Assembly: GCA_937944105.1 (NCBI GenBank)
Contig: CALDZP010000023.1
Location: 1-32,878 of the forward strand
Direction: 5' to 3'
DNA: 32,878 bases
DNA from: an uncultured Ignavibacteria bacterium
Lineage (GTDB): Bacteria > Bacteroidota > Ignavibacteria > Ch128b
The position numbers were made by a program, and so were the translations under genes. Below are positions 9,671 through 26,290 of the stretch, piece by piece. Below the pieces are notes generated by a model that saw nothing but the letters and a program-made list of their open reading frames with translations, was not told the origin of the DNA and did no database searches. Position 1 is the stretch's first letter. Each line of letters begins with the position of its first letter.

Positions 9671-10778
9671 ATGTACGAAGAACAAAGAAGACAATTAGAT
9701 GAATTAAATCGAAGACTAGTAGATTTACGAGGTTATCTTTGACATTGATAAAAGAATTAATTTAATAAAGGAATTAGAAAATAAAACCCAGGAACCATCT
9801 TTTTGGGAAGACCAAAAATCCGCTCAAAAAATTTTGCAAGAAATCAAAACTAATAAAGAGATTATAGAAAAATTTCAGAAAGTTGAAAAAACAGGAAAAG
9901 ATTTAACTGAATTAATCGAACTTGCAGATTTAGAAGAAGATGAAAATTTCCTTCCAGAAATTGAAAAAGAAATTACTTTATACGAAAAACAAATTGAAGA
10001 ACTTGAATTTCAAAATATGCTGGGCGGAAAAGATGATCCTAAAAATGCAATTTTAACAATTCATTCAGGTGCTGGTGGGACAGAAGCTCAGGATTGGGCT
10101 GAAATGCTTTTGAGAATGTATCTTAGATGGGGTGAACGGAATGGTTTTCAAATGAACATAATGGATATTCTTGAGGGTGAAGGTGCAGGAATTAAAAGCG
10201 CAACTGTTGAGGTAGTTGGTCCATATGCATATGGTTATCTAAAAGCTGAAAGTGGTGTTCATCGCTTGGTTAGAATTTCTCCATTTGATGCAAATAAAAG
10301 AAGACACACTTCTTTTGCTGCAGTTTTTGTTATTCCTGAAGTCGACGATGAAATTGAAATCGAAATTAATCCTGCTGACCTAAAAATTGATACATATCGT
10401 TCAGGTGGTAAAGGCGGTCAAAATGTAAATAAAGTTGAAACCGCTGTGAGAATTACACATATTCCTACAGGAATTGTTGTTGCCTGTCAAAGTGAACGAT
10501 CACAATTTCAGAATAGAAACAATGCAATGAAATTACTAAAAGCGAAACTGTATCAACTTGAACTTGAAAAATTAAATCAACAAAAAAATGAAATTGAAAA
10601 ATCTAAAATGAAAATTGAATGGGGTAGTCAGATAAGATCTTATGTTTTTCATCCATACAATCTTGTAAAAGATCATAGAACTAATTATGAAACTTCTGAC
10701 ATTCAATCCGTAATGGATGGTGAAATTAATGAGTTCATTAAAGCTTATCTAATGCAATTTAGCAAAGAATCTAAGTAG
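9671..10778 (+). CDS. prfB: Peptide chain release factor 2, with programmed +1 frameshift
   Basis: RF2 ends translation at UGA and UAA. The coding region is joined from two frames: ATG at 9671 opens 23 codons ending LRGYL, then in-frame TGA at 9740-9742; slipping +1 on CTT (9737-9739) reads GAC at 9741 and continues DIDKRIN to the stop at 10776-10778, giving 368 residues, the usual RF2 length. A Shine-Dalgarno-like GAGGT (9729-9733) sits 3 bases before the slippery CTT, as in Escherichia coli. The codon-recognition tripeptide SPF is at residues 203-205 and the catalytic GGQ at 248-250. GGGAG at 9662-9666 is the ribosome binding site. Low RF2 lets the ribosome pause at TGA and shift, so the gene is autoregulated. 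YjbQ-family gene follows after 9 bases. Confidence 0.96.
9729..9743 (+). promoter_or_regulatory. RF2 programmed frameshift signal
   Basis: GAGGT, a 3-base spacer TAT, and the slippery stop CTT TGA C. This is the canonical bacterial RF2 recoding site, except that the SD-like part is GAGGT rather than the AGGGGG of Escherichia coli. Translation shifts +1 from the frame of 9671 to the frame of 9741. Confidence 0.95.
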
Positions 10779-11365: not shown

Positions 11366-13339
11366 ATGATGAAAAAAGCAATATTATCTTTAATTATAAG
11401 TTATATATCTTGTTTTTCACTCATTGCACAGGACCATCAAAAACTTTCTAAAGTATTAAAAGATGATAATTCAAAATATACTAATGTTGGCAATATTGGC
11501 TTGACGATCACGAATTTTGGAATGTATGGTCATGGATTTACTCTCTGGCCCAGACAACCAAATTGTGAATATCCAAGAGGTAGCGGTATTGAACATATTT
11601 TTGATGGAAGTCTATGGGTTGGTGGAATTGTTGATGGTCAAATTCGAGTTACAACTGGTTCAGTTGATGCAGCATCAGTCGGTACAAGAGGTGGAGGATT
11701 TGAATTTACCAATTCTCCTGAATCCAAAATCATTGAAAGATCTTCGTTATTAACAAGTAAATTCTATGATCCCAAAGCTATCAGCCATCAAGATTTTATA
11801 GCCGAGTATTCTGATACTTCCACAAGATTACTCAGTGGTGAAATAATACCTGACCACAATCCACTTGGGATTTCAGTTAGGCAGGAAACTTATGCCTGGA
11901 ATTTCCCTTTTGCTGATTTTTTTGTAATAATGAATTATTGGATAAAAAATGTTTCAAATAAAACAATTGAAAACATTTATGTTGGATTATGGACTGATGC
12001 TGTGGTAAGAAATACTAACATCACTTCACCGAGAGTAGGTTCTCCGTTTTATACACATGGTGGCAATGGATATATTGATTCTTTAAGACTTGGCTATGAA
12101 TTTGATTATGATGGAGATCCAGGATTTACAGATTCTTATTTTGCAGTAAAATATCTTGGTTCGGTCCCACAAGTAAATACAGCTTATTTTCAATCATGGC
12201 AATTTAGAAATACAACTGATCCCGTATATTTTTCACCACAAGATGACAATCAGAGATATGAAAAACTCTCTCAGTCGCTAAGACGCGATAGAATTGATCC
12301 TTTAAGATTAACTCCCAGCAATAGATCTTTTCTTGTTTCCACAGGTCCATTTGTTCGATTAGAACCTGGTGATTCTATTAATGTAACTTTTGCCATAATT
12401 TGTGCGAAAAAATATGGAACCGAACCTGCTATGTTTGATACAGAAATTCAACGTAAAATTCTTTATTCAAATGCACATTGGGCACAATTAGTATATGACA
12501 CAAAGTACAGATTTCCTGAACCTCCCGTTTCGCCAAGAATTAAAGTGGTTCCTGAAAATAAAAAAGTTACACTTTACTGGGATAAATCAGCAGAAGAATC
12601 CATTGATCCTCTTTCAGGTAAAAAAGATTTTGAAGGATATCGGATTTATAGATCTCAAGCAGGAGCAGATTTAACACAGGCTCAGGACTTAAATCAATTA
12701 TTAATTAAAGTTGCAGAATTTGATAGTGCAGGAAACGAGTTTGGTTATAACACAGGTTTTAATTATATAAAATTACCAACTCCTAAATTCTTTGATGGTG
12801 ATTCAATTGCATATTACTATAAATTTGAATTCGATAATTTATTAAATGGTTGGCAATATATCTTTTCAATTACAGCATTTGATAAAGGTGATATTGAGAA
12901 TAATATTGAAAGTCTTGAAAGTAGTCCAATAGCAACATCGGTTAGGGTATTTCCGGGAACAAGTCCAAAATCTATTGATGAAGCTGAAATTGGTGTTTAC
13001 CCTAATCCTTATTATGCAGGTGCAATCTGGGATGGACCGCAGGAAAGACAAAGAAAAATATATTTTTACAATTTACCCGAGGAATGTGAAATTACAATAT
13101 ACACTTTAGCGGGGGATATTGTAGATGTCCTGGAGCATAATAAAAATTATAACGGAAGTAATATTAGATGGTTTGAAACCTATTCAAAAGAAGGAAATCA
13201 AATTTTATCTGGCGGTGAACATGCATGGGATTTAATTACGAAGTATGATCAGGCAATTGCATCGGGACTTTACCTTTTTACAGTAAAAGATAAAAAGACC
13301 GGAAAAATTAAAACAGGAAAGTTTTTAGTAATTAAATAA
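11366..13339 (+). CDS. Exported protein with FN3-like domain and T9SS-type C-terminal sorting domain
   Basis: A 657-residue protein with a signal peptide (about residues 1-21, ending CFSLIAQ), a long beta-rich region with many aromatic and Asn/Gly residues, an FN3-like domain at about 390-535 (segments KVTLYWDKSAEES and FEGYRIYRS), and a C-terminal domain from about 540 that starts GVYPNPYYAG and ends SGLYLFTVKDKKTGK...FLVIK, the pattern of T9SS type A sorting domains. It is expected to be exported and attached to the cell surface or released. No catalytic motif is recognised. A second ATG directly follows the first and could serve as the start. It is the first of seven same-strand genes; 12 bases separate it from the next. 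Exact function unknown. Confidence 0.85.
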   Translation: MMKKAILSLIISYISCFSLIAQDHQKLSKVLKDDNSKYTNVGNIGLTITNFGMYGHGFTLWPRQPNCEYPRGSGIEHIFDGSLWVGGIVDGQIRVTTGSVDAASVGTRGGGFEFTNSPESKIIERSSLLTSKFYDPKAISHQDFIAEYSDTSTRLLSGEIIPDHNPLGISVRQETYAWNFPFADFFVIMNYWIKNVSNKTIENIYVGLWTDAVVRNTNITSPRVGSPFYTHGGNGYIDSLRLGYEFDYDGDPGFTDSYFAVKYLGSVPQVNTAYFQSWQFRNTTDPVYFSPQDDNQRYEKLSQSLRRDRIDPLRLTPSNRSFLVSTGPFVRLEPGDSINVTFAIICAKKYGTEPAMFDTEIQRKILYSNAHWAQLVYDTKYRFPEPPVSPRIKVVPENKKVTLYWDKSAEESIDPLSGKKDFEGYRIYRSQAGADLTQAQDLNQLLIKVAEFDSAGNEFGYNTGFNYIKLPTPKFFDGDSIAYYYKFEFDNLLNGWQYIFSITAFDKGDIENNIESLESSPIATSVRVFPGTSPKSIDEAEIGVYPNPYYAGAIWDGPQERQRKIYFYNLPEECEITIYTLAGDIVDVLEHNKNYNGSNIRWFETYSKEGNQILSGGEHAWDLITKYDQAIASGLYLFTVKDKKTGKIKTGKFLVIK

Positions 13340-13351
13340 AGGAGTAAAGTA

Positions 13352-15478
13352 ATGAAAAAGATTTTTGTTTTATCATTTTTGATCATAACAATTCAATTAT
13401 TTGGTCAATCAAATTATCCAATTGTATCCATAAGAGATATTCAATTTCAACCTCAAGATTCTTTAGCAGCAGGTAAAGATAACTCACCAAAATTAGGGGA
13501 TACTGTTACTGTCATTGGAGTTGTGATGGTTTCTCCACTCGATAATCCAAATACTACCAGAAGACCAATTATGTGGGCAGGTGCTCGATGGCAAACATAT
13601 ATTGCTGATACAAACTATAGCTTAAATGAATGGGCTGGTTTAAATGTTATTCAACACGATACAAGTGTAGCTGGACAATCAACTTATTTTGATTTACTTG
13701 ATACCTGTATGATCGTTGCTATTACAGGAAGAATCGAAGAATTTGGTACAACCTACCGTCAAACACAACTTGCGGTTTTACTGACCTCATCGGTGCAAAT
13801 CCTTGGTCAGAAAGATTCTAGACCTTCACCTGTGCTTGTAAATATTTCTGATTTTGTTAGTGGAACTACACCAAATTTAGTTACTGGTGAAAAATATGAA
13901 GGAATGTATGTTGAATTTAGAAATGTAATTACTTCCGATGCCAATGCTTCAAATGGAACTTTTGCAATAAATGATCCCAGTGGAAACAAATTATTTATTC
14001 ATGATCAATCGGGGTATTTTACAAGGAGGACCCATCAACTTAGAACATGGGATCCACCTGTAAATGGAACGGTGTTAGAATATATTCGAGGAGTTATTGG
14101 AACTGGAAGTCAAGGTTATGTTTTGAGACCTGTTTATCCAAATGATTATAAAGTAGGACAAATTATTCCACCAGCAATTTCTGCCATTAGAAGAGATTTA
14201 AGCACTGTTGGTCCTAATCAACCAGTTAATATTACTGCAACAATCACTGATATGGATGGAACTGTTGCTGGTGCAAAAATTAAATATAGAGTGAATGGTG
14301 GTCAATTAAATGAAATAAATATGTCACCAGTATCGGGGACTACATGGAGTGGTACAATTCCAGGTGTTCAGGACTCTGCATTAGTCGATTATTTTATTTG
14401 GGCTGTAGATAATGCAGGGAATACTTCTATTAATCCAGTTGATACTTCAAGATCAAGATATTTTTATCTTGTATTAAATCGGGATCTTACAATTCAAGAT
14501 GTCCAATATGCTCCATTTGGTAATGGTTTAGGTGGCTATTTAAATTATAGAGTTACAGTCAGAGGAATTGTAACTGCTGATACTTCTGATCTAAGAGGTG
14601 ATGGTGGTTCAGTTTCAAGAAGAGCATATATTCAGAACGGTACAGGCCCATGGAGTGGAATCTGGGTAGCAGGACTTTATGGGGATGAACTAAGGAAAGG
14701 ACAGGATGTAACAATCTCAGGTCTTATTAGAGAAATAAATTCTCATACTGCAATCGACTCTGTTACTTCTTTAGTTGTGAATTCTAGTAATAATCCTGAA
14801 CCTCAAGCTCAATTAGTCACAACTGGTGAAATAGGTGGTAAAACAAAAGGAACTCTAAGTGCTGAAATGTGGGAAGGAGTTTTAATAAAATTTAATAATG
14901 TAACTGTGACCAATACTAATGCTGATGGAAATCCTGGTCCTTCTGGTGGTGGGAATAGTAATTTCGGTGAAGTTTTAATTAATGATGGATCGGGTAACCT
15001 GAGAATGGAAACTCAAGAAGGACCACACAGATTTCACAATAATTGGACTTTAAATCTTCCACCAAATAAAACAATACCGCTTAATGTAGGTGATAGGTTT
15101 AATACAATCAAAGGCATTTTATTTTATTCATTTGGAAATTATAAAATTGTTCCAAGAAAAGATGATGATTTTGAGGGTTATCAAACAGGCATTGAAGATG
15201 AATTATTACCTGATAAATTTATTCTGAAGCAAAATTATCCCAATCCTTTTAATCCTTCTACTATTATTGAATACAATCTTCCTGAAGCTTCTATTGTAAC
15301 ACTTAAAATTTATGATATGTTGGGAAGAGAAGTTAAAACGCTTGTTAATTCTGAATACCAATCGAAAGGATTATATAAATATTTCTTGAATGCTCATGAT
15401 TTGTCAAGTGGTGTTTATATTTATAAAATCAAAACAGAAAAATTTTCATCCACAAAAAAGATGATTTTAGTCAGATAA
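13352..15478 (+). CDS. Exported protein with two OB-like regions and T9SS type A sorting domain
   Basis: A 708-residue protein with a signal peptide (about residues 1-19, ending QLFGQ). Two regions, about 20-270 and 376-600, show the DTVTVIGVV / VTVRGIVTA openings and the YIQNGTGPWSGIWV and ITGRIEEF / ISGLIREI steps of the OB-fold (DUF5689-like) domains often joined to secreted nucleases. Between them, at about 275-375, is an Ig-like domain of the type that precedes DNAGN. The C-terminal sorting domain (about 620-708) has QNYPNPFNPSTI and ends SSGVYIYKI...KKMILVR. No nuclease active site is visible, so it may be a binding partner rather than an enzyme. AAAGGAG lies 7 bases before the ATG. A hairpin follows the stop codon. 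Confidence 0.85.
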   Translation: MKKIFVLSFLIITIQLFGQSNYPIVSIRDIQFQPQDSLAAGKDNSPKLGDTVTVIGVVMVSPLDNPNTTRRPIMWAGARWQTYIADTNYSLNEWAGLNVIQHDTSVAGQSTYFDLLDTCMIVAITGRIEEFGTTYRQTQLAVLLTSSVQILGQKDSRPSPVLVNISDFVSGTTPNLVTGEKYEGMYVEFRNVITSDANASNGTFAINDPSGNKLFIHDQSGYFTRRTHQLRTWDPPVNGTVLEYIRGVIGTGSQGYVLRPVYPNDYKVGQIIPPAISAIRRDLSTVGPNQPVNITATITDMDGTVAGAKIKYRVNGGQLNEINMSPVSGTTWSGTIPGVQDSALVDYFIWAVDNAGNTSINPVDTSRSRYFYLVLNRDLTIQDVQYAPFGNGLGGYLNYRVTVRGIVTADTSDLRGDGGSVSRRAYIQNGTGPWSGIWVAGLYGDELRKGQDVTISGLIREINSHTAIDSVTSLVVNSSNNPEPQAQLVTTGEIGGKTKGTLSAEMWEGVLIKFNNVTVTNTNADGNPGPSGGGNSNFGEVLINDGSGNLRMETQEGPHRFHNNWTLNLPPNKTIPLNVGDRFNTIKGILFYSFGNYKIVPRKDDDFEGYQTGIEDELLPDKFILKQNYPNPFNPSTIIEYNLPEASIVTLKIYDMLGREVKTLVNSEYQSKGLYKYFLNAHDLSSGVYIYKIKTEKFSSTKKMILVR

Positions 15479-15488
15479 TTTTTATTTG

Positions 15489-15519
15489 GGAGATGCAGAA
15501 AAATTCATGCTGCATCTCC
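15489..15519 (+). terminator. Intercistronic hairpin inside the secretion operon
   Basis: A perfect 10-bp stem, GGAGATGCAG (15489-15498) with CTGCATCTCC (15510-15519), and an 11-base loop, placed 11 bases after a stop codon. An extra G-T pair (15488/15520) can be added. No U-tract follows, so it may attenuate transcription or protect the 3' end of the upstream message rather than terminate fully. It is the only sizeable spacer between the first five genes of the operon. Confidence 0.5.
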
Positions 15520-15547
15520 TGATTTATGAATTAAATTAGAAAAGATT

Positions 15548-17113
15548 ATGAAGAGCAAATTAATTTTTTTATTTGTCCTTTTAGGAAGTTTATTTTATAT
15601 CTCTTGTTCAGAATCAATAACCGGTACAAAATTGGAAAATCTTCCTCCAGAGACTAAAATTTTTCTATTCCCTGATTCAACTGATGCAATAAGTAAGCAA
15701 AAGAGCAAACTACGCATTTTCTGGTGGGGTGACGATCCCGATGGTTTTGTTATTGGTTATTATATTAAGTGGGAAAATCAACCATGGGCATTTACAACGA
15801 AAACAGATTCTACTTTTACTTTGTCAATTACCGGAATGGATACGAATTACACTTTTTATGTTGCAGCAGTAGATAATAATGGAAATAGTAAGTATGATAA
15901 TCAAATAATAAGAAATAATATAAATTTTGGACCAGAACCTTTTGTAGATAAAAACGCCAACGGTATTTACGACGATGGTGAATTATTTATTGATATTGGA
16001 AATGTCGATCCTACTCCTGCTCAATTTAGATTTCCTATTAAAAATTCACCTCCTGAAATTTCATTTCAGAAAAATTCAGAGGTTCCAGAGACTACTTTTA
16101 CTGCCGCAAGTTTTGCATGGACAGTATCGGATATAGATGGTGATGAAACTGTGGATAAAATTTATATTGCTCTAAATGATACTTCGAATTTTGTAGAACT
16201 CCCAGGTCATATTTCCTTTATTACTATTATTGCTAATCCTCCTTTTAATTCTGATGTGGTAGAAGCTAATATATACTTTGGCTCTTCAATAAATCAACCG
16301 TATTCATTAAAACTTCCTAACCTAAAGCTTAATTCACTCAATAGGTTTTATGTTAAAGCAAAAGATATTGCTGGTGCTTTTAGTAAAACTATTTCTATGC
16401 CTGATTCTTCAAGAATTTGGTATGTTAAAAAACCAAAAGGTGAAATTTTATTAATTGATGATTATACCATTGCAGATAATGCCGAACAATTCTACCTTAA
16501 AATGTTAGATAGTATTTCACTGGGGGGAAAATACGATTATCTTGATATTAAATTTGGTAAAACATCCACAACGCCAGGAATCTTTTTACCTAAATTTATT
16601 AATCCAACTTTCACCGCCACTATGAGATTATTTAAGGTTGTATTTTGGTTTACTGACAATAATCCAACACTTGAAGTTGCTCAACTTTCAATTAGAAATT
16701 ATACCGAAAGTGGTGGCAAGATTTTACTTTCAATGATTTTTCCACAAACTTTTGATACTAGAAGCTTGGGAGATTTTTTACCAATAGATAGTGTTTCACA
16801 GACTCCCATCAGTTTTATTCCATTTAATACACCTGTTAATGTCACATCTGAGGGACAGGCTATTGGATATCCAGACCTTCAAAGGGATAATCAGGGAACA
16901 GTAGCCAGAATTAGGACTTTTTATCCAAGTTCAGCAGCTGCTACAAAACTTTATACTTTAGGTGTTTCTGGTAATCCAATTATTGGTTTTAAAGATAATG
17001 ATTCAAGAAGGATATTTATTGGTTTACCATTGCATAGACTTAACGGTGGTCAATCTAATGTAAAAGAATTTTTCAGAAAGGTATTTATTGATGAATTTGG
17101 AGTTAGACCATGA
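15548..17113 (+). CDS. Lipoprotein with FN3-like domain and possible GATase-like C-terminal domain
   Basis: A 521-residue lipoprotein: the signal peptide ends in LFYIS-C20, followed by SESITG, so Cys20 is the likely lipidated residue. Residues about 50-125 resemble an FN3 domain (FWWGDDPDGFVIGYYIKW ... YTFYVAAVDNNGN). An Asp-rich loop, DKNANGIYDDGE near residue 136, resembles calcium-binding loops of the dockerin/EF-hand type. From about residue 298 (GEILLIDDYTIAD) the pattern of alternating strands, with FWFTDNN and ESGGKILLS (about 386-394), suggests an alpha/beta domain of the class-I glutamine amidotransferase/ThuA sort, without a visible catalytic triad. It overlaps the TonB-dependent receptor gene by 4 bases (ATGA). 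Exact function unknown. Confidence 0.8.
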   Translation: MKSKLIFLFVLLGSLFYISCSESITGTKLENLPPETKIFLFPDSTDAISKQKSKLRIFWWGDDPDGFVIGYYIKWENQPWAFTTKTDSTFTLSITGMDTNYTFYVAAVDNNGNSKYDNQIIRNNINFGPEPFVDKNANGIYDDGELFIDIGNVDPTPAQFRFPIKNSPPEISFQKNSEVPETTFTAASFAWTVSDIDGDETVDKIYIALNDTSNFVELPGHISFITIIANPPFNSDVVEANIYFGSSINQPYSLKLPNLKLNSLNRFYVKAKDIAGAFSKTISMPDSSRIWYVKKPKGEILLIDDYTIADNAEQFYLKMLDSISLGGKYDYLDIKFGKTSTTPGIFLPKFINPTFTATMRLFKVVFWFTDNNPTLEVAQLSIRNYTESGGKILLSMIFPQTFDTRSLGDFLPIDSVSQTPISFIPFNTPVNVTSEGQAIGYPDLQRDNQGTVARIRTFYPSSAAATKLYTLGVSGNPIIGFKDNDSRRIFIGLPLHRLNGGQSNVKEFFRKVFIDEFGVRP

Positions 17114-19914
17114 AAAAAATTTTCTTATTATTCTTCTTTTTGATTGCAACACTCTTCAGTCAGGAAAAAGCTATATTAACCGGAAAAGTCGTCGATTCAA
17201 AAACAGGTGAACCATTACCGGGTGTTAATGTTGTAATTAAAGGAACTTATTATGGCGCAGCAACTGATATTAATGGGAATTTTATTATCAAAGATTTAAA
17301 CCCCGGAATTTATAACATTGATGTTTCCCTAATTGGTTATAAACTTGTACAATTTACAGGTATAAAAATAAATCCAGGAGAAAGGAAAATTTTAAATGTT
17401 AAAATGGAAGAAACGGTTTTGACTCTTGGTAAGGAAGTAGTAGTTATAGGTGAGAAACCCTTAATTGATGTCGAAGAAACTTCGAGTAGAAAAACTATCT
17501 CAAAGGAAGACATTGAGGTTGCTCTTGTTGAAAATGTTAAAGATGTAGTAACTCAACAAGCGGGGGTTGTTTATTCAGATAATGCTGTTCACATTCGTGG
17601 TGGCAGGTCTTATGAAAATGCATTTCTATTGGATGGTGTCTCCATACAGGATCCTTTAGCAGGGACAGGTTTTGGTTTGCAATTAAGCGCTTCTTCTGTT
17701 GAAGAAATTGAAGTTATAACTGGAGGATTTAATGCTGAATTTGGGCAGGCTACATCAGGAGTTGTTAATGTTAGAACTAGAGAAGGTGGTAAAGATTTTA
17801 GAGGTACTCTATCATGGAAACAAGATCATTTTGGATTTAATAAAAATTCACCTTATTCATTTAATTCAGATATCATCGAGGCGAGTTTAAGTGGACCCGA
17901 ACCTTTTACAAATTTTGTTTTACCTGCAATTGGTTTAAGAATACCAGGTGAAGTTACATTTTATGGAAATTTTTATATGGGAATTTCAGATGGTATCACT
18001 CAAGGGTGGGTAAAAACAAAAGCTACTAAATTATACTCTTCAATATTTTATGGTTCAAGATTTGCACTTCGTCAGGAAAATTCATATTTCTGGTTGGGAA
18101 AGTTAACCTGGAAAATAAATCCATTAATTAAATTATCTTACTCCTTTAATCAGTCAGTCAGTATAAATCAAAACTCTCAATCACTCCAGACAAATCTTGA
18201 ATACGTCGAACCAAGTCCAGGTTATCAATACGAATTTCAATATAATCTCGATAATGCAAATGTTTATACTCATAATAACTTATTCCATATCTTTAGTTTT
18301 ACACATACTTTAAGTGCAAAAACTTTTTATGAAGTTAAGCTTTCAAGATTTTTCACTCATTTGAGAGCTGATGCAAACGGACTTGATTGGAAAGACTATC
18401 GAGAGCCAAAGGACATTACAAATCCACCACTTGAATATTTTAACACAAATAGAGATACAATTGGTGTAATTCCTGGAGATGGATTCTGGGACTTTGGTAA
18501 TCCCTTCACCTGGCATGATCATCATGTAGAAGAATATAATTTTAAGTTTGATCTTACAACTTTATTTACTGAAAAGAGTAAATTCAAAACAGGATTTGAT
18601 TTAAGTGTTAGAGAAATGCAACTGATTGATATTTATAAACCATGGATTGGAGAACTTGGTTTAAATAATGATATTTATAAAGTTTATCCTGCACAAGGTG
18701 CAATCTATGCTCAGAATAATATAAATTTCAGTGGAATGATTTTAAATTTTGGCTTAAGATTCGACTTTTGGTTACCGGGGAAATTTGTCGATGATGCAGT
18801 AAAAAATCCAGAAGTTGTTACAATCCCTGATGAAATTCGTAAACGATATATGCAAAAAACATATAATTTATTCGGTCGTAGGATGAAAGCCCGATTGAGT
18901 CCTAGACTTGGTATTTCTCATCCGATTTCTGACAATCAAACTTTATTTTTCAGTTATGGACATTTCAGTAAATGGCCAAGACCACAATTTGTCTATGCAA
19001 AAATGACACCTGCTGCAGCAAAATCATCATTTCAAAAATTTGGTAATCCAGATTTAAATCCTGAAACAACTGTTGCATATGAATTAGGAATTCGGAATCA
19101 ATTTACTTTAGATGATGTTTTCACATTGACTGCTTACTACAAAGATATTTTTGATTATGTATCAACAAGAACCGCACGAATTCAAGATCCAAGACTTGGT
19201 TCGAGAAGTTTTATAACTTATGTTAATCAAGATTATGCAAGATCACGAGGTATTGAAGTAGAATATAAAAAGAGAATTGGAAGATGGTTTAATGGTTCAT
19301 TTTCTGCATCGTACTCGATTGCAACCGGAAAAAGTTCAAGTGCTGATGAAGGAGTTCTTGTGTTGAGAGGTGATATTGATGAATCAATTAAAGAATATTA
19401 TATGATATGGGATCGGCCATTCCAGGCTTCGGTGAATTTAAACTTTTATGTTGAAAAAAATAAACCTTTATTTAACTTTGGTTCGGGAATTCTTGACGAT
19501 TATAATGTTTATCTTAGAATCTTTTATCAGTCAGGTAAAAGATATACGCCGTACATTTTCACTGGTCAATATCTTGAAGATGGTAGACCTGTTTATTCCA
19601 TCAACAGGAAAAATAGAAATGGCGCAGTTGGAAAAGATTGGTTCTGGGTTGATTTAAATTTTGAAAAATTCTTTACTTTAAGTGGATTAAAATGGTCAAT
19701 TAGAGTCGAAGTAAATAATGTATTTGATTTCAAAAATTCTGCTATTATAAATCCGGTAACTGGAAAAGCTTATGAATATGGTGATCCAACTCCATTAACC
19801 TGGAATGATCCATTGTACCCAAGCTATCAAGCTCCACTTGATCCATATCCATTTAATCCAGCAAGATATTTAACACGGAGAAATATAAAAGCTGGAATTA
19901 CAGTGAGGTTCTAA
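17110..19914 (+). CDS. TonB-dependent receptor with carboxypeptidase-regulatory-like domain
   Basis: A 934-residue outer-membrane receptor. After a signal peptide (about residues 1-18, ending TLFSQ) come a carboxypeptidase-regulatory-like domain (about 20-105: ILTGKVVDSKTGEPLPGVNV, then AATDINGNF), a plug domain (about 120-225, with VHIRGGRSYENAFLLDGVSI and EVITGGFNAEFGQATSGVVN) and a 22-strand-type beta barrel ending in an aromatic residue (AGITVRF). Such receptors import ligands with energy from TonB-ExbBD. It is translationally coupled to the preceding lipoprotein, as in SusC/SusD-like pairs, but that lipoprotein does not look like SusD. The ligand is unknown; no TonB, ExbB or ExbD gene is in the window. 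Confidence 0.93.
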   Translation: MKKIFLLFFFLIATLFSQEKAILTGKVVDSKTGEPLPGVNVVIKGTYYGAATDINGNFIIKDLNPGIYNIDVSLIGYKLVQFTGIKINPGERKILNVKMEETVLTLGKEVVVIGEKPLIDVEETSSRKTISKEDIEVALVENVKDVVTQQAGVVYSDNAVHIRGGRSYENAFLLDGVSIQDPLAGTGFGLQLSASSVEEIEVITGGFNAEFGQATSGVVNVRTREGGKDFRGTLSWKQDHFGFNKNSPYSFNSDIIEASLSGPEPFTNFVLPAIGLRIPGEVTFYGNFYMGISDGITQGWVKTKATKLYSSIFYGSRFALRQENSYFWLGKLTWKINPLIKLSYSFNQSVSINQNSQSLQTNLEYVEPSPGYQYEFQYNLDNANVYTHNNLFHIFSFTHTLSAKTFYEVKLSRFFTHLRADANGLDWKDYREPKDITNPPLEYFNTNRDTIGVIPGDGFWDFGNPFTWHDHHVEEYNFKFDLTTLFTEKSKFKTGFDLSVREMQLIDIYKPWIGELGLNNDIYKVYPAQGAIYAQNNINFSGMILNFGLRFDFWLPGKFVDDAVKNPEVVTIPDEIRKRYMQKTYNLFGRRMKARLSPRLGISHPISDNQTLFFSYGHFSKWPRPQFVYAKMTPAAAKSSFQKFGNPDLNPETTVAYELGIRNQFTLDDVFTLTAYYKDIFDYVSTRTARIQDPRLGSRSFITYVNQDYARSRGIEVEYKKRIGRWFNGSFSASYSIATGKSSSADEGVLVLRGDIDESIKEYYMIWDRPFQASVNLNFYVEKNKPLFNFGSGILDDYNVYLRIFYQSGKRYTPYIFTGQYLEDGRPVYSINRKNRNGAVGKDWFWVDLNFEKFFTLSGLKWSIRVEVNNVFDFKNSAIINPVTGKAYEYGDPTPLTWNDPLYPSYQAPLDPYPFNPARYLTRRNIKAGITVRF

Positions 19915-19915
19915 T

Positions 19916-20911
19916 ATGAATTTAAAACTTAAGAATTTTTGTTTATACATAATTTTGATTGTCTTCATAATGTTCCATCAAATGAAAGGGCAATTATTAC
20001 CTGTATTGGGTGGACAAAGAGCTGGTATTTCAACAATGCAATTTCTTAAAATTGGTGTAGGTGGTAGAGCTGTAGGTATGGGAGAATCTTTTATTGCTAT
20101 AGCTAATGATGCATCAACTTTGTATTGGAACCCTTCAGGAATTGTTAATTTTTCTGAACATCAAGCAATCTTCTCTCATACTCAATGGATTGCGGACATT
20201 AAACATGAATTTGTAGGTTATGTCCATCACATTAGTGATGTCGATGCTGTTGGAATATCTTTTATTTCACTCCACATGGATGATATGCAGGTTACCACTG
20301 AACTTATGCCGTTCGGAACTGGTGAATATTTCTCTTTTGGTGATTTTGCAATTGGACTCTCTTACGCTCATAAGTTTACTGAACAATTTAGCTTTGGATT
20401 TACAATCAAATATGCACGTGAAACTTTAGACAAACTTCACATGGATGGTTTCCTTTTTGACTTAGGAACTTATTACTGGACAGGTTTAGGTACATCAAGA
20501 TTTTCCGTTGTTGTTTCTAATTTTGGTAGTAATATGGCACCTAAGGGTGAGGTTATTCTATTAAATGGTAAAAAGATTTCTGATTTTCAATCATTTTCTC
20601 CACCGACTATGTTCAGGATTGGTTTTGCCTTAGAACCTATATATACAGAAAATCATAAGTTAACTACATCCATACAGATTAATCATCCTAATGATAATTC
20701 AGAAAATTTAGCACTTGGACTCGAATATAACTGGCAAAACATTTTTTCATTAAGAGGTGGTTACAAATTAAATGTTGACGAACAAAAATTCTCATTCGGT
20801 GCAGGTATTAAAGCACCTATTTCATTTGCAAGTCTCTCTTTCGACTATGCTTACAATAGTTTTTCTCGATTGGGGAATACACATAGATTTTCAATAATTC
20901 TGGGAATATAA
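19916..20911 (+). CDS. PorV/PorQ-family outer-membrane protein
   Basis: A 331-residue protein with a signal peptide (about residues 1-26, ending HQMKGQ) and a FadL-like beta-barrel pattern. The family opening is clear: the FLKIGVGGRAVGMGESFIA segment (about 40-58), then ANDASTLYWNPSGIV (about 60-74) and QWIADIKHEFVGYVHH. PorV and PorQ belong to the T9SS: PorV carries cargo from the translocon to the attachment complex, while PorQ is linked to PorZ. Which subtype this is cannot be told here. It starts 1 base after the receptor gene and 2 bases before the next lipoprotein gene, so it is firmly inside the operon. Its place among three T9SS-type cargoes suggests a local shuttle role. Confidence 0.87.
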   Translation: MNLKLKNFCLYIILIVFIMFHQMKGQLLPVLGGQRAGISTMQFLKIGVGGRAVGMGESFIAIANDASTLYWNPSGIVNFSEHQAIFSHTQWIADIKHEFVGYVHHISDVDAVGISFISLHMDDMQVTTELMPFGTGEYFSFGDFAIGLSYAHKFTEQFSFGFTIKYARETLDKLHMDGFLFDLGTYYWTGLGTSRFSVVVSNFGSNMAPKGEVILLNGKKISDFQSFSPPTMFRIGFALEPIYTENHKLTTSIQINHPNDNSENLALGLEYNWQNIFSLRGGYKLNVDEQKFSFGAGIKAPISFASLSFDYAYNSFSRLGNTHRFSIILGI

Positions 20912-20913
20912 TT

Positions 20914-21993
20914 ATGAATAAATTTTCGTTATTCATTCTTTTTGCAATGTTTTTAGTTGGTTGTGGAGAAAAATTAGATTTAACAGAATTTACATCAAGA
21001 GCAAGACAAGGAACTTCTTCTACAGATACAGCTTATGTTTTGATCAATCCACCATGGACTGGTTTTAATAATCCAAACGATATTATGGTAGGGCGTGAAC
21101 CTTTTATTTATATTGCAGATACTGATAATAATCGAGTTGTTGTTTTGAATCTTGCCGGTCAATTCATTGGCTCAATTAACGTTAAACATCCTATCGCTCT
21201 CGCTCAGGATTATAGATTGAATTTATTTATCTGCGCTGAATTTGATACAACTATAAATGGAGTAACAAAAACTTTCGGTGCTCTTTATAAAGCCGATTTA
21301 TTTAGTGTTCAACATAATTTTAATCAAGTCAAATTACAGAGATTGCTACCAAAAACTTCAATTGATTTTTCAAAAGAGCACCGTAGATATACAGGCGTGG
21401 CTATTTTTTATGATAACTCTTACCTTGTTACCAGAACTGGTCCTGATAACTCAAGTTTCATAGATCCGGATAATGCAATTCTTGAGTTTGTTCAAATAAA
21501 AAATTCTGATGGAACAATTCGTGATTCATTAATAGGTAGGTTACCAAATTTCGAAGCAACAGGAAGTGGTTTGATGTCGATTAATGAGCTTTCTGGAATT
21601 ACTTCTTTCAATCGTAAAAATTATGATATAGTTACAACTCAAACTGGAAATACAAACTTTAAAGTCCAATGGCTCAAATTTATTGTGACTAATGAATACG
21701 CAGGATATGTCAGTAAATTTGAACCAGGTGATCCAAGAGTTGATATGTTGAAAATTGATAAATTTGGAAAACCCGAAGATGTTACTGTGGATAATAATAA
21801 CAATGTTTATGTGATTGATAGCGAAAAAGATAGTCTATTTAAATTCAATCAATATGGCACTGAAATGCATTCATTTGGTGGAAGTAAACTTTTTAAGAAT
21901 CCAAAAGGTGTTGCATTTTTTGATAAAACATTATACATATGTGATTCCGGTAATAATCGCATATTAAGATTTATTCTCTCCACCGATTTATAG
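20914..21993 (+). CDS. NHL-repeat lipoprotein
   Basis: A 359-residue lipoprotein: the signal peptide ends in FLVG-C17, followed by GEKLD. The body has NHL-type beta-propeller repeats, clearest at about residues 45-90 (NPNDIMVGREPFIYIADTDN, then NRVVVLNLAG) and again at about 280-355 (KPEDVTVDNNNNVYVIDSEK, KGVAFFDKTLYICDSGNNRI). NHL propellers usually bind protein, RNA or glycan partners, and some have hydrolase activity; nothing here identifies an enzyme. It lies 2 bases after the PorV/PorQ-like gene and 28 bases before the PLD-like gene. A periplasmic or surface scaffold or substrate-binding role fits best, but this is inference. Confidence 0.85.
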   Translation: MNKFSLFILFAMFLVGCGEKLDLTEFTSRARQGTSSTDTAYVLINPPWTGFNNPNDIMVGREPFIYIADTDNNRVVVLNLAGQFIGSINVKHPIALAQDYRLNLFICAEFDTTINGVTKTFGALYKADLFSVQHNFNQVKLQRLLPKTSIDFSKEHRRYTGVAIFYDNSYLVTRTGPDNSSFIDPDNAILEFVQIKNSDGTIRDSLIGRLPNFEATGSGLMSINELSGITSFNRKNYDIVTTQTGNTNFKVQWLKFIVTNEYAGYVSKFEPGDPRVDMLKIDKFGKPEDVTVDNNNNVYVIDSEKDSLFKFNQYGTEMHSFGGSKLFKNPKGVAFFDKTLYICDSGNNRILRFILSTDL

Positions 21994-22021
21994 AATATTA
22001 CATAAAATAAAGGTATGTTCA

Positions 22022-24322
22022 ATGAAAAAAATTTTAGTCTCCTTTGTCCTTTTTTTAAATTTTGTTGGATTTGCGCAAGTAACTTACACACCTATTTCTC
22101 AACTAAGATTTAATAATTCTAGTGGTGTTCCAATTGATTCAGGAAACATTTATACTATTACTGGTATTGTTACTGTTGGAAATGAGTTTAATAGCCCATC
22201 ATACATTCAAGATAATACAGCCGGAATTGCTATATATGCAAGAGGAAGTGGACAATTCTCTGCTTCTGTAAAAATAGGGGATTCGGTTGCAGTGACAGGT
22301 AAATTAACTCATTTTCGTGGATTAACTCAATTTGATCCAGTTTATTCGTTTCAAAAATTTGATTCAAATAAGGTTGTTAATCCTCTTATTTTGACCATAA
22401 ATGATATTAAGTCTCAAGATTGGAATGGATATGAAGCGTACGAAGGTATGTTAGTTCGAATCAATAATGTAACAGTATCTGCTTCGGGCAACTGGAACGG
22501 AAATACAAATTATACAATAACAGATTCAACAGGTTCAATGACTTTAAGAATTGTGAATGGAACTAATCTTGTTGGTCAGGCAATACCTTCAGGAAAATTT
22601 GATGTAATTGGCGCTCTTGGGGCATTTAAAACTAATCCACCTTATGATGCAAGCTCTTATCAAATTCTTCCAAGAAGTGTTTATGACATTGTTACTGATT
22701 TAAAACCATTTATTCTAAAACCAATTGTTGTTTCTCAAATAACCCAAAATTCCTTCAAAGTTTATTTTGAGACAATGCATGAAGGTAATACAGAAGTAAG
22801 ATATGGTCTTACACAAGATTTAGAGATAGGTTCTTTTATTGATCAAACAATGACCAAATATCATCAAATTATTGTATCAGGCCTTCAACCAGCTACAAGG
22901 TATTATTATAGAGTCTATTCAACTAATCAATACGGAACAAGTGAAGGTCCACTTGAGACAGTTACTACTTCTTCCAATGGAACATCCACTGGAAAAATTA
23001 ATGTTTATTTTAATTCGACTGTTGATAATACAGTTGCAATACCAGGAAATGAAGCGATGGGAAATGTCAATTTAACTGAAAAACTTTTAGAAAGAATTAA
23101 TTCTGCTGAGTATTCAATTGACATGTGCGTTTATAGTTTTTATAATCAACCAACAATAGTTAATGCGCTTATCGCTGCTAGAAATCGTGGAGTTAAAGTT
23201 AGAATTGTTTATGATAAACGTACAACACAGAATTCAATGCAACAATTAATAAATCAAGGATTTTTGATAAGCAAAAGGCCCGCTGGTGATGGAATTATGC
23301 ATAACAAATTTTTTATCTTTGATGGTCGTGATTCTAATCCCGCAAATGATTGGGTATGGACTGGAAGCTGGAATCTTTCTGCTGATGAAAGTGCATGGTT
23401 AAATAACGTAATAGAAATAAATGATTTTCAACTTGCTCAGGCATATACGAAAGAGTTTGAAGAAATGTGGGGAAGTAACACAGATATTCCCAATTCCACT
23501 CAAGCTAAATTTGGACCTGCTAAGTCCGATAACACTCCACACTATTTCACAATTTCCAATAAAGAAATTCAATTATATTTCAGTCCTACAGATCAAACAA
23601 CAACAAAAATTAAAAACACTTTAAATACAGCGGATTCATCTATTTATTTTGCTTTATTAACATTCACACGATCAGACATTGCCAGTACAATCGCTTCGAG
23701 AGTTAATTCTGGTGCCCAGTTGAGAGGAATTATAGATAATGTTAATGATTCTGGTTCTCAATATCTTTTCTTAAAAAACTATGGAGAAGTTTTTGATTAC
23801 AATTTATCTGGTACATTACATCATAAATATGGAATAGTTGATGCTTCATGGCAAAATCTGGATCCCTATGTCATTACTGGTTCACATAATTGGTCTAATG
23901 CTGCTGAACAAGTTAATGATGAGAATACATTGATCATAAAAGATATTTTCATTGCAAATCAATATATGCAAGAATTTAAAAGACGATACAATGATTTGGG
24001 TGGAACAGGGATTTTTACTATTCCAGTTATTCAAGAAGTAAAAGAAAAATATATTCCTTATAAAGTTGAACTACATCAAAATTTTCCAAATCCATTTAAT
24101 CCTGTTACAACAATTTCATTTACACTGCTTGAAAAAACAAAAGTCAAAATTGTTTTATATGATTTATTAGGCAATGAAATAAAAACTATTTACGATGGGA
24201 TAGCAGATGCAGGGAAAACAGTTATCGATTTCAGAGCAGATGGATTATCATCAGGTGTTTACTTGTATACTCTATATGCAAATAATGTTTCGATTTCGAG
24301 AAAAATGATTTTATTGAAGTAA
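22022..24322 (+). CDS. Exported phospholipase D/Nuc-like protein with OB-like, FN3 and T9SS sorting domains
   Basis: A 766-residue exported protein. After a signal peptide (about residues 1-20, ending GFAQ) come OB-like (DUF5689-like) regions at about 22-225 (YTITGIVTVGNEF, VAVTGKLTHF, then VRINNVTV), an FN3-like domain at about 235-325, and a PLD core with two HKD motifs: H427-x-K429-x4-D434 followed by TGSWN, and H600/H601-K602 with D607 (HxKx4D) followed by TGSHNWS. The C-terminal sorting domain (about 680-766) contains QNFPNPFNPVTT and ends SSGVYLYTL...KMILLK. PLD-superfamily enzymes with this arrangement cleave phosphodiester bonds in phospholipids or DNA; the OB-like domains favour nucleic acid. 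It is the last gene of the seven-gene block. Confidence 0.9.
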   Translation: MKKILVSFVLFLNFVGFAQVTYTPISQLRFNNSSGVPIDSGNIYTITGIVTVGNEFNSPSYIQDNTAGIAIYARGSGQFSASVKIGDSVAVTGKLTHFRGLTQFDPVYSFQKFDSNKVVNPLILTINDIKSQDWNGYEAYEGMLVRINNVTVSASGNWNGNTNYTITDSTGSMTLRIVNGTNLVGQAIPSGKFDVIGALGAFKTNPPYDASSYQILPRSVYDIVTDLKPFILKPIVVSQITQNSFKVYFETMHEGNTEVRYGLTQDLEIGSFIDQTMTKYHQIIVSGLQPATRYYYRVYSTNQYGTSEGPLETVTTSSNGTSTGKINVYFNSTVDNTVAIPGNEAMGNVNLTEKLLERINSAEYSIDMCVYSFYNQPTIVNALIAARNRGVKVRIVYDKRTTQNSMQQLINQGFLISKRPAGDGIMHNKFFIFDGRDSNPANDWVWTGSWNLSADESAWLNNVIEINDFQLAQAYTKEFEEMWGSNTDIPNSTQAKFGPAKSDNTPHYFTISNKEIQLYFSPTDQTTTKIKNTLNTADSSIYFALLTFTRSDIASTIASRVNSGAQLRGIIDNVNDSGSQYLFLKNYGEVFDYNLSGTLHHKYGIVDASWQNLDPYVITGSHNWSNAAEQVNDENTLIIKDIFIANQYMQEFKRRYNDLGGTGIFTIPVIQEVKEKYIPYKVELHQNFPNPFNPVTTISFTLLEKTKVKIVLYDLLGNEIKTIYDGIADAGKTVIDFRADGLSSGVYLYTLYANNVSISRKMILLK

Positions 24323-26250: not shown

Positions 26251-26290
26251 ATCCCTGAATGATTTAATAAAAATTATTCAGGGATTTTTT
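26251..26290 (+). terminator. Intrinsic terminator after atpDC
   Basis: ATCCCTGAAT (26251-26260) pairs perfectly with ATTCAGGGAT (26276-26285); the stem can extend inward through a G-T pair and four more pairs to a 5-base AATAA loop. A run of six T follows (26285-26290). It lies 22 bases after the atpC stop and ends at the convergent trkA stop; on the minus strand the downstream sequence is less U-rich, so it is mainly a plus-strand terminator. Confidence 0.9.

What the first reader, a model, noticed from the sequence alone, without database searches (positions are those of the whole stretch)
22022..24322. Surface-exported PLD/Nuc enzyme fused to OB-like and FN3 domains
The two intact HKD motifs (H427/K429/D434 and H600/K602/D607) with TGSWN and TGSHNWS predict an active phosphodiesterase, and the N-terminal OB-like regions favour nucleic acid as substrate. 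A T9SS-exported PLD nuclease would give the cell a way to use or clear extracellular DNA, for example in biofilms. I know of no well-studied enzyme with this domain order.
Basis: partly seen in the sequence, partly recalled or inferred. Interest (0 to 1): 0.5.

Follow-up and report, generated by a model that had tools for sequence, protein, structure and literature searches.

The report
Surface PLD-type nuclease in an operon
A bacterium of the Ignavibacteria encodes a cell-surface enzyme that probably cuts DNA or RNA outside the cell, as the last gene of a conserved cluster of outer-membrane genes, which hints at a way to capture and use nucleic acid from outside.

Summary
ORF 22022-24322 (766 aa) has a signal peptide, tandem OB folds, an FN3-like domain, two intact HKD halves and a T9SS sorting tail. 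The twelve HKD/GSxN residues are invariant in 34 of 34 aligned homologues (33 distinct).

Nucleic acid as substrate is favoured, not proven. By sequence profile the core is nearest Zucchini/MitoPLD, Nuc and NucT and far below the cardiolipin-synthase cut-off. By fold, the exonucleases PLD3/PLD4 and one phospholipase D lead together. The OB region resembles nucleic-acid-binding OB folds.

In six families of the class, 45 of 48 readable loci have this PLD, an exported EEP-family enzyme or both just downstream; one also has an Endonuclease I. In nine other families 0 of 44 do.

Best reading: a surface nuclease, a module-swapped relative of ExeM and EndA, perhaps serving nucleic-acid scavenging. 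A lipid substrate, or a cluster with another purpose, stays possible. New variant of a known kind.

The parts
22022..24322 (+). PLD gene, 766 aa
22022..22075 (+). signal peptide, predicted cleavage before Q19 (read by eye)
   Evidence: hydrophobic stretch 4-15 and A18-Q19; Q in the column of residue 19 in 28 of 34 rows
22082..22705 (+). tandem OB-fold region, residues 21-228
   Evidence: AlphaFold pLDDT 95; fold matches; ExeM/NucH OB match 65-160
22706..22975 (+). FN3-like domain, residues 229-318
   Evidence: Pur_ac_phosph_N and fn3 below cut-off; profile to titin FN3
22985..23476 (+). first HKD half, residues 322-485
   Evidence: PLDc_2 355-483; structure
23300..23323 (+). HKD motif 1, H427-D434
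   Evidence: 34 of 34 invariant
23534..24007 (+). second HKD half, residues 505-662
   Evidence: PLDc_2 second stretch
23819..23842 (+). HKD motif 2, H600-D607
   Evidence: 34 of 34 invariant
24083..24319 (+). T9SS type A sorting domain, residues 688-766
   Evidence: Pfam and TIGR04183 over cut-off
11366..13339 (+). cluster gene 1: 657-aa exported protein (T9a), T9SS tail only hinted
   Evidence: conserved position; TIGR04183 15 bits, below cut-off 23
13352..15478 (+). cluster gene 2: OB-containing protein with T9SS tail, no enzyme domain found
   Evidence: OB homologous to the PLD's OB, hhalign probability 95.3, E 2.1e-8
15548..17113 (+). cluster gene 3: FN3 lipoprotein (lipobox read by eye)
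   Evidence: fn3 28.7 bits, cut-off 25
17110..19914 (+). cluster gene 4: TonB-dependent receptor
   Evidence: Plug, OMP_b-brl_3, CarbopepD_reg_2
19916..20911 (+). cluster gene 5: PorV/PorQ-family paralogue
   Evidence: NF033709 231 bits, cut-off 90; below the PorV and PorQ equivalog cut-offs
20914..21993 (+). cluster gene 6: NHL-repeat lipoprotein
   Evidence: NHL 55.7 bits
24413..25822 (+). atpD, next gene; flank, not part of the system
   Evidence: ATP synthase F1 beta, read from the sequence; the usual neighbour in f1, f10 and f22 loci

Best explanation
A T9SS-exported cell-surface nuclease. Shown: two HKD motifs in one chain, in a modelled fold where both halves form one PLD-type core. Inferred from family knowledge: one histidine forms a phospho-enzyme intermediate and the other acts as general acid, so one chain makes one metal-independent active site; the tandem OB folds hold the strand, FN3 is a spacer, and PorU removes the tail and fixes the protein on the surface. 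It would cut extracellular DNA or RNA. Being the last gene of a cluster with a TonB-dependent receptor, a PorV paralogue and an OB-bearing surface protein, it most likely feeds a nucleic-acid or organic-phosphorus scavenging route. I give about 0.68 to surface nuclease and about 0.35 to the scavenging role.
For: Invariant catalytic residues, 34 of 34. Profile of 34 homologues against solved structures: Zucchini 75 bits, Nuc 69, NucT 39, PLD3 23, against 20 for the best phospholipase (7e0m); no cardiolipin synthase, Streptomyces PLD or PssA at E <= 0.01. NucT model 61 bits against 18.8 for cardiolipin synthase. PLD3 Z 34.1 over 311 residues at 2.5 A. OB region like RPA, SSB, HIN and AspRS OB folds. 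Long homologues put LTD and DUF5689 in front of the same core, the accessory set of ExeM, whose OB-like region is needed for activity (PMC6085458, passages). Downstream slot: 40 PLD and 5 EEP in 48 readable loci of six families, one EEP locus having both; the EEP locus L060 also has an Endonuclease_1-LTD-DUF5689-CTD gene (153 bits, cut-off 25). The window's genome has no EEP and no Endonuclease_1 match, so no rival nuclease of those two families. PorU 1004 bits and SprA 980.6 bits in the genome.
Against: No activity or export was shown. Foldseek ranks a phospholipase D (7e0m, E 7e-16) just above PLD3 (9.7e-16), and on Z it is only 1.5 behind, so the fold does not decide. PLD nucleases usually carry one HKD and dimerise, while lipid enzymes usually have both in one chain, PLD3/PLD4 being exceptions (PMC10783504, passages). 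The OB region is not basic: net charge -1 here, mean -7.6 over 34 rows, though an Endonuclease_1 domain and its OB region in L060 are more acidic (-16, -20). The slot EEP has no nuclease-specific match. The OB region alone also occurs in proteins without a nuclease domain, among them cluster gene 2.
Confidence: 0.68

Rival explanations
1. The enzyme acts on lipids: an exported phospholipase D or transphosphatidylase, with the EEP slot enzyme as a sphingomyelinase-like partner.
For: Foldseek's first match is a phospholipase D, with Z 32.6; two HKD in one chain is the usual lipid arrangement; in E. coli an EEP gene, ybhP, lies next to the PLD-family clsB, so PLD plus EEP adjacency is not specific to nucleases.
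Against: Sequence profiles put Zucchini, Nuc and NucT well ahead of any phospholipase; cardiolipin synthase 18.8 bits vs 290; OB, LTD and DUF5689 partners are those of ExeM-type nucleases; Endonuclease_1 in one slot.
Confidence: 0.2
2. The six-gene cluster is a class-wide envelope or T9SS module with its own job, and the nuclease is only a neighbour added in some families.
For: The receptor is found, in one copy in nearly all cases (two places in G109), in 121 of 197 genomes; in nine families 0 of 44 readable loci have PLD or EEP downstream, although the PLD is elsewhere in many of those genomes; in 17 f6 loci a membrane protein unrelated to nucleases sits between.
Against: Spacing of 30 bp or less, overlaps included, between NHL gene and PLD in 18 of 23 direct cases; PLD replaced by EEP in the same place in five loci; cluster gene 2 shares the PLD's OB domain; PLD and receptor co-occur (99 both, 14 PLD only, 22 receptor only, 62 neither, not corrected for kinship).
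Confidence: 0.4
3. A surface enzyme for another phosphodiester polymer, or a weapon against competitors or phage.
For: The HKD fold also serves other phosphodiesters; fold matches include polyphosphate kinase.
Against: No immunity-like partner or defence family was noticed in the cluster, though the defence library was not searched; the closest sequences are nucleases.
Confidence: 0.08

Closest known systems
ExeM/NucH extracellular nucleases (Shewanella)
   Same: exported; OB-like region before the catalytic domain; LTD in the long PLD homologues as in ExeM
   Different: catalytic domain is EEP in ExeM and double PLD here; export by T9SS tail
EndA-type exonucleases with FN3 and LTD (Flavobacterium johnsoniae EndA1/EndA2, PMC8115612 passages)
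   Same: Bacteroidota exported nuclease with FN3 as accessory; listed there with TonB-dependent transporters in a phosphate-depletion study
   Different: Endonuclease_1 catalytic domain; listed as orphan genes
Nuc / NucT / Zucchini (PLD6)
   Same: closest by sequence profile
   Different: one HKD per chain and homodimer; no OB, FN3 or T9SS tail
PLD3/PLD4 5' exonucleases
   Same: two motifs in one chain, best Z, extracytoplasmic
   Different: second motif HKE there, HKD here; 20% identity; membrane-anchored lysosomal proteins
Phospholipase D 7e0m
   Same: similar fold (Foldseek rank 1, Z 32.6)
   Different: weak sequence match (20 bits); accessory domains were not compared

Membership tests
PLD (HKD) superfamily | HxKxxxxD with downstream GSxN, twice | tested here: met
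Nuc/NucT/Zucchini nuclease group | sequence closest to this group | tested here: met
   profile search; tree weak
Nuc/NucT/Zucchini nuclease group | one HKD per chain | tested here: not met
   two per chain
Nuc/NucT/Zucchini nuclease group | nuclease activity | not testable with these tools
   needs assay
Bacterial cardiolipin synthase (TIGR04265) | score over 290 bits | tested here: not met
   18.8 bits
PLD3/PLD4 | HKE second motif | tested here: not met
   D607 in 34 of 34
ExeM/NucH (NF033681) | score over 300 bits, with EEP domain | tested here: not met
   38.6 bits over the OB part only; no EEP match
T9SS type A cargo | C-terminal sorting domain over cut-off | tested here: met
T9SS type A cargo | PorU and SprA in the genome | tested here: met
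T9SS type A cargo | actual export | not testable with these tools
   needs fractionation
DUF5689 / YhcR-like OB | Pfam DUF5689 over cut-off | tested here: inconclusive
   no match in this protein; met in long homologue L080 (49.3 vs 28.6); OB fold supported
FN3 | Pfam fn3 over cut-off | tested here: inconclusive
   18.6 vs 25 here; 26 in L080; titin FN3 by profile

The most novel reading that the evidence does not exclude
A dedicated surface machine for extracellular nucleic acid in Ignavibacteria: an OB-bearing T9SS protein binds the polymer, an interchangeable exported nuclease (PLD, EEP, or EEP with Endonuclease I) cuts it, and a conserved TonB-dependent receptor with its own lipoproteins and PorV paralogue imports the products, a nucleic-acid counterpart of polysaccharide utilisation loci.
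Probability: 0.25. Interest if true: 0.72.

Novelty: new variant of a known kind. Interest (0 to 1): 0.43.

Why it matters
If true, it names a gene set by which widespread, hardly cultivated bacteria of sediments, groundwater and sludge would take nucleic acid from outside as food or phosphorus, and gives a marker for eDNA users that nuclease screens restricted to other domains overlook. A screen of sludge MAGs that reported secreted nucleases lists its nuclease domains, and PLD is not among those named in the passage I saw (PMC11495043, passages).

Tried and rejected
Cardiolipin synthase: rejected, 18.8 vs 290 bits; in 61 genomes of the class no TIGR04265 match passes the cut-off, 21 have weaker ones. 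Fold search as a judge between nuclease and lipase: not decisive, PLD3 and 7e0m nearly tie. Viral structure library: best matches poxvirus envelope lipase and giant-virus PLD proteins, not informative. Charge as a test of nucleic-acid binding: not discriminating, since an Endonuclease_1 domain of the same class is more acidic. Promoter and terminator scans: 66 promoter-like sites against 74.1 expected and 4 terminator-like against 6.5, so no evidence either way. The slot EEP: no solved relative by sequence at E <= 0.1 and no NCBIfam nuclease model, so its activity is open. Plasmid search: 3615 records with partial matches, the 20 listed being PLD-only proteins, 0 covering 80% of the query.

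Rows dropped before counts: from the 119 genomes I left out six (G004, G067, G147, G148, with matches before the PLD core, and G029, G112, with short core fragments) to reach 113; the genome lists were copied by hand into. Of 121 receptor genomes, 107 were read around the receptor (108 loci, G109 twice); 14 were not fetched (G004, G015, G043, G094, G104, G108, G114, G122, G161, G165, G167, G174, G181, G196). Of the 108 loci, 16 could not be read at the slot (13 without an NHL gene found, 3 at a contig end), leaving 92, 48 in six families and 44 in nine. The three exceptions among the 48: L063 (atpD follows directly), L128 (contig ends), and L161, where the script did not count the PLD because my region cut it; one search shows it there (G102:C57:41338-43329). 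L162 (G131) has its PLD about 18.6 kb from the receptor and was not readable. PssA was fetched but the motif script found no motif in it, so it is not in the tree; only one motif of ClsB and of the Vibrio protein was used.

Literature: searches. (phospholipase D, extracellular nuclease, type IX secretion) and one search returned none; one search returned one paper, whose passage concerns an unrelated protein. So no paper on a T9SS-exported PLD nuclease was found in this library by these searches; subscription papers are mostly absent.

Full report
What is there. The ORF at 22022-24322 encodes 766 residues: signal peptide, an OB region (21-228), an FN3-like domain (229-318), two PLD halves (322-485, 505-662) and a T9SS type A tail (688-766). 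All six residues H, K, D, G, S, N of each motif are invariant in 34 of 34 aligned homologues, 33 distinct. The window belongs to a 2.74 Mb MAG, 99.4% complete; named relatives are nearly all labelled Ignavibacteria, Ignavibacteriales or Melioribacter(aceae), so the class is inferred as Ignavibacteria. The genome has a PorU sortase (1004 bits, cut-off 420) and SprA (980.6 bits with neighbouring pieces, cut-off 200), and the whole-protein search met 84 places, nearly all by the tail alone.

Structure. The AlphaFold model made with 34 homologues has mean pLDDT 85.9 and pTM 0.63. Foldseek puts a phospholipase D (7e0m) first at E 7e-16 and PLD3 third at 9.7e-16. The second look orders them the other way: PLD3 Z 34.1 over 311 residues at 2.5 A, PLD4 33.7, 7e0m 32.6, vaccinia F13 30.9, E. 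coli phosphatidylserine synthase 28.0, Streptomyces PLD 25-26. The fold therefore shows a bilobal HKD enzyme but not its substrate. The OB region alone models at pLDDT 95.2. Foldseek's first 34 matches are HIN domains, tandem-OB DNA-binding domains, at modest TM; the first OB aligns with AspRS, AsnRS, RPA and SSB at Z 10-11. A shared fold shows no function.

Sequence relations. A profile of the 34 homologues against solved structures gives Zucchini 75 bits, Nuc 69, NucT 39, PLD3 23 and 7e0m 20. NCBIfam gives NucT 61 bits and cardiolipin synthase 18.8, both far below their equivalog cut-offs. In a FastTree of HKD halves, both halves of this protein fall with Nuc and Zucchini, separated from ClsA, ClsB and six other Ignavibacteria PLD proteins by a split of support 0.83; the segments are about 150 residues and several nodes are weak. 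Some of those six score nearly as well as Zucchini in BLAST against the first half, and they are not proven cardiolipin synthases.

Gene neighbourhood. Seven genes run on the + strand from 11366 to 24322 with spacings of 12, 69, -4, 1, 2 and 28 bp; atpD follows after 90 bp. The set is: T9a (657 aa), an OB protein with T9SS tail, an FN3 lipoprotein, a TonB-dependent receptor, a PorV/PorQ-family paralogue, an NHL lipoprotein, and the PLD. In 18 of the 26 named loci the NHL gene lies directly upstream of the PLD; L023 has 10 kb upstream and no cluster, L030, L031, L032 and L034 (outside the class by title) have none, and others end too soon. Cluster gene 2 shares the OB domain of the PLD (hhalign probability 95.3).

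Survey. In 197 genomes of the class, 113 have a PLD-core match and 121 the receptor, 99 both, 14 and 22 one only, 62 neither. Fisher's p of 7e-19 ignores kinship. PLD and receptor lie within 12 kb in 42 of 99, all in families f1, f6, f10, f13, f22 and f26. I read 108 receptor loci from 107 genomes: 67 have all five other core genes within reach, 22 four, 14 three, 2 two, and 3 (family f7) none, so the f7 receptors are not this cluster. The slot after the NHL gene could be read in 92. In the six families, 45 of 48 have PLD and/or EEP within three genes: 23 PLD directly, 17 PLD after one ~600-aa membrane protein (all f6), 5 EEP (one followed by PLD). In the nine others it is 0 of 44, though many of those genomes have the PLD elsewhere, often as a ~1,100-aa form.

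The replacement. In four complete EEP loci the protein is signal peptide-EEP-T9SS tail, with Exo_endo_phos at 30-46 bits over a cut-off of 24.5 (L060, L061, L062, L098); the fifth, L064, is cut by a contig end, and marks a stop in it. The EEP genomes G058, G105, G112 and G124 have no full PLD core. In L060 the EEP is followed by an LTD-OB protein and by an Endonuclease_1-LTD-DUF5689-T9SS protein (153 bits, cut-off 25). All five are in f10 and f22, so one or two events may explain them. The family of this EEP is found in 55 of 197 genomes, and five copies sit in the slot. The window's own genome has no EEP and no Endonuclease_1 match. This is the best evidence for a nucleic-acid role, but the EEP is not shown to be a nuclease, and E. 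coli keeps an EEP gene, ybhP, next to clsB, so the pairing alone does not exclude lipids.

Precedent from print (passages only). ExeM of Shewanella has LTD, an OB-like region and EEP, and deleting the OB-like region nearly abolishes activity (PMC6085458). F. johnsoniae EndA1 and EndA2, with FN3, LTD and Endonuclease_1, appear in a table of phosphate-depletion expression together with a TonB-dependent transporter of Pfam make-up PF07715, PF13715, PF14905 (PMC8115612); the window's receptor carries these three, a common set. The PLD3 paper says PLD nucleases are typically one-HKD homodimers and lipid enzymes carry both motifs in one chain, PLD3/PLD4 being exceptions (PMC10783504); this counts against me.

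Mechanism, step by step. Shown: intact double HKD, tail, T9SS genes, cluster. Inferred: export and anchoring; one composite active site per chain with a histidine phospho-intermediate; strand held by the OB folds; products taken up by the receptor or broken down further. The charge of the OB region (net -1 here, mean -7.6 over 34) does not favour nucleic-acid binding, but bona fide nuclease-family domains of the class are as acidic.

Verdict. Surface nuclease 0.68; lipid enzyme 0.2; the scavenging role 0.35; the cluster having another main job 0.4. The enzyme is a new variant of a known kind, a module swap among exported nucleases. The conserved cluster with an exchangeable exported phosphodiesterase is the more interesting part.

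Noticed in passing
window 9736-9742: CTTTGAC preceded by an AGG, upstream of a release-factor gene (PCRF and RF-1 domains, ORF from 9834): the well-known prfB programmed frameshift site (motif recalled).
   Followed up: partly
window 11366-21993: Six-gene outer-membrane cluster with a TonB-dependent receptor that is nearly always single-copy, in 121 of 197 genomes of the class; function unknown, worth study by itself.
   Followed up: partly
L147 6089-7867 and the same place in 16 other f6 loci: A 592-614-aa polytopic membrane protein (by eye) between the NHL gene and the PLD; for L147, no Pfam match at E <= 1 and no NCBIfam match.
   Followed up: partly
L080 8671-11961: Long form of the PLD protein with an N-terminal lamin-tail domain and DUF5689, not linked to the cluster.
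   Followed up: partly
L029 3-1953: In one MAG the PLD gene is read as two overlapping frames (256 and 417 aa): a frameshift or assembly error.
   Followed up: no
A1, column of residue 19: Q follows the predicted signal-peptide cleavage in 28 of 34 rows, in line with the high Q-value reported for Ignavibacterium album (PMC5837995 passage).
   Followed up: no
window 26251-26285: Strong terminator-like hairpin after atpC; the scan as a whole does not exceed chance.
   Followed up: no
G000:C48:7239, C3:5610, C18:3572: Three other ORFs of the genome with PLDc_2 matches (open frames 1163, 1125 and 718 aa); not identified.
   Followed up: no
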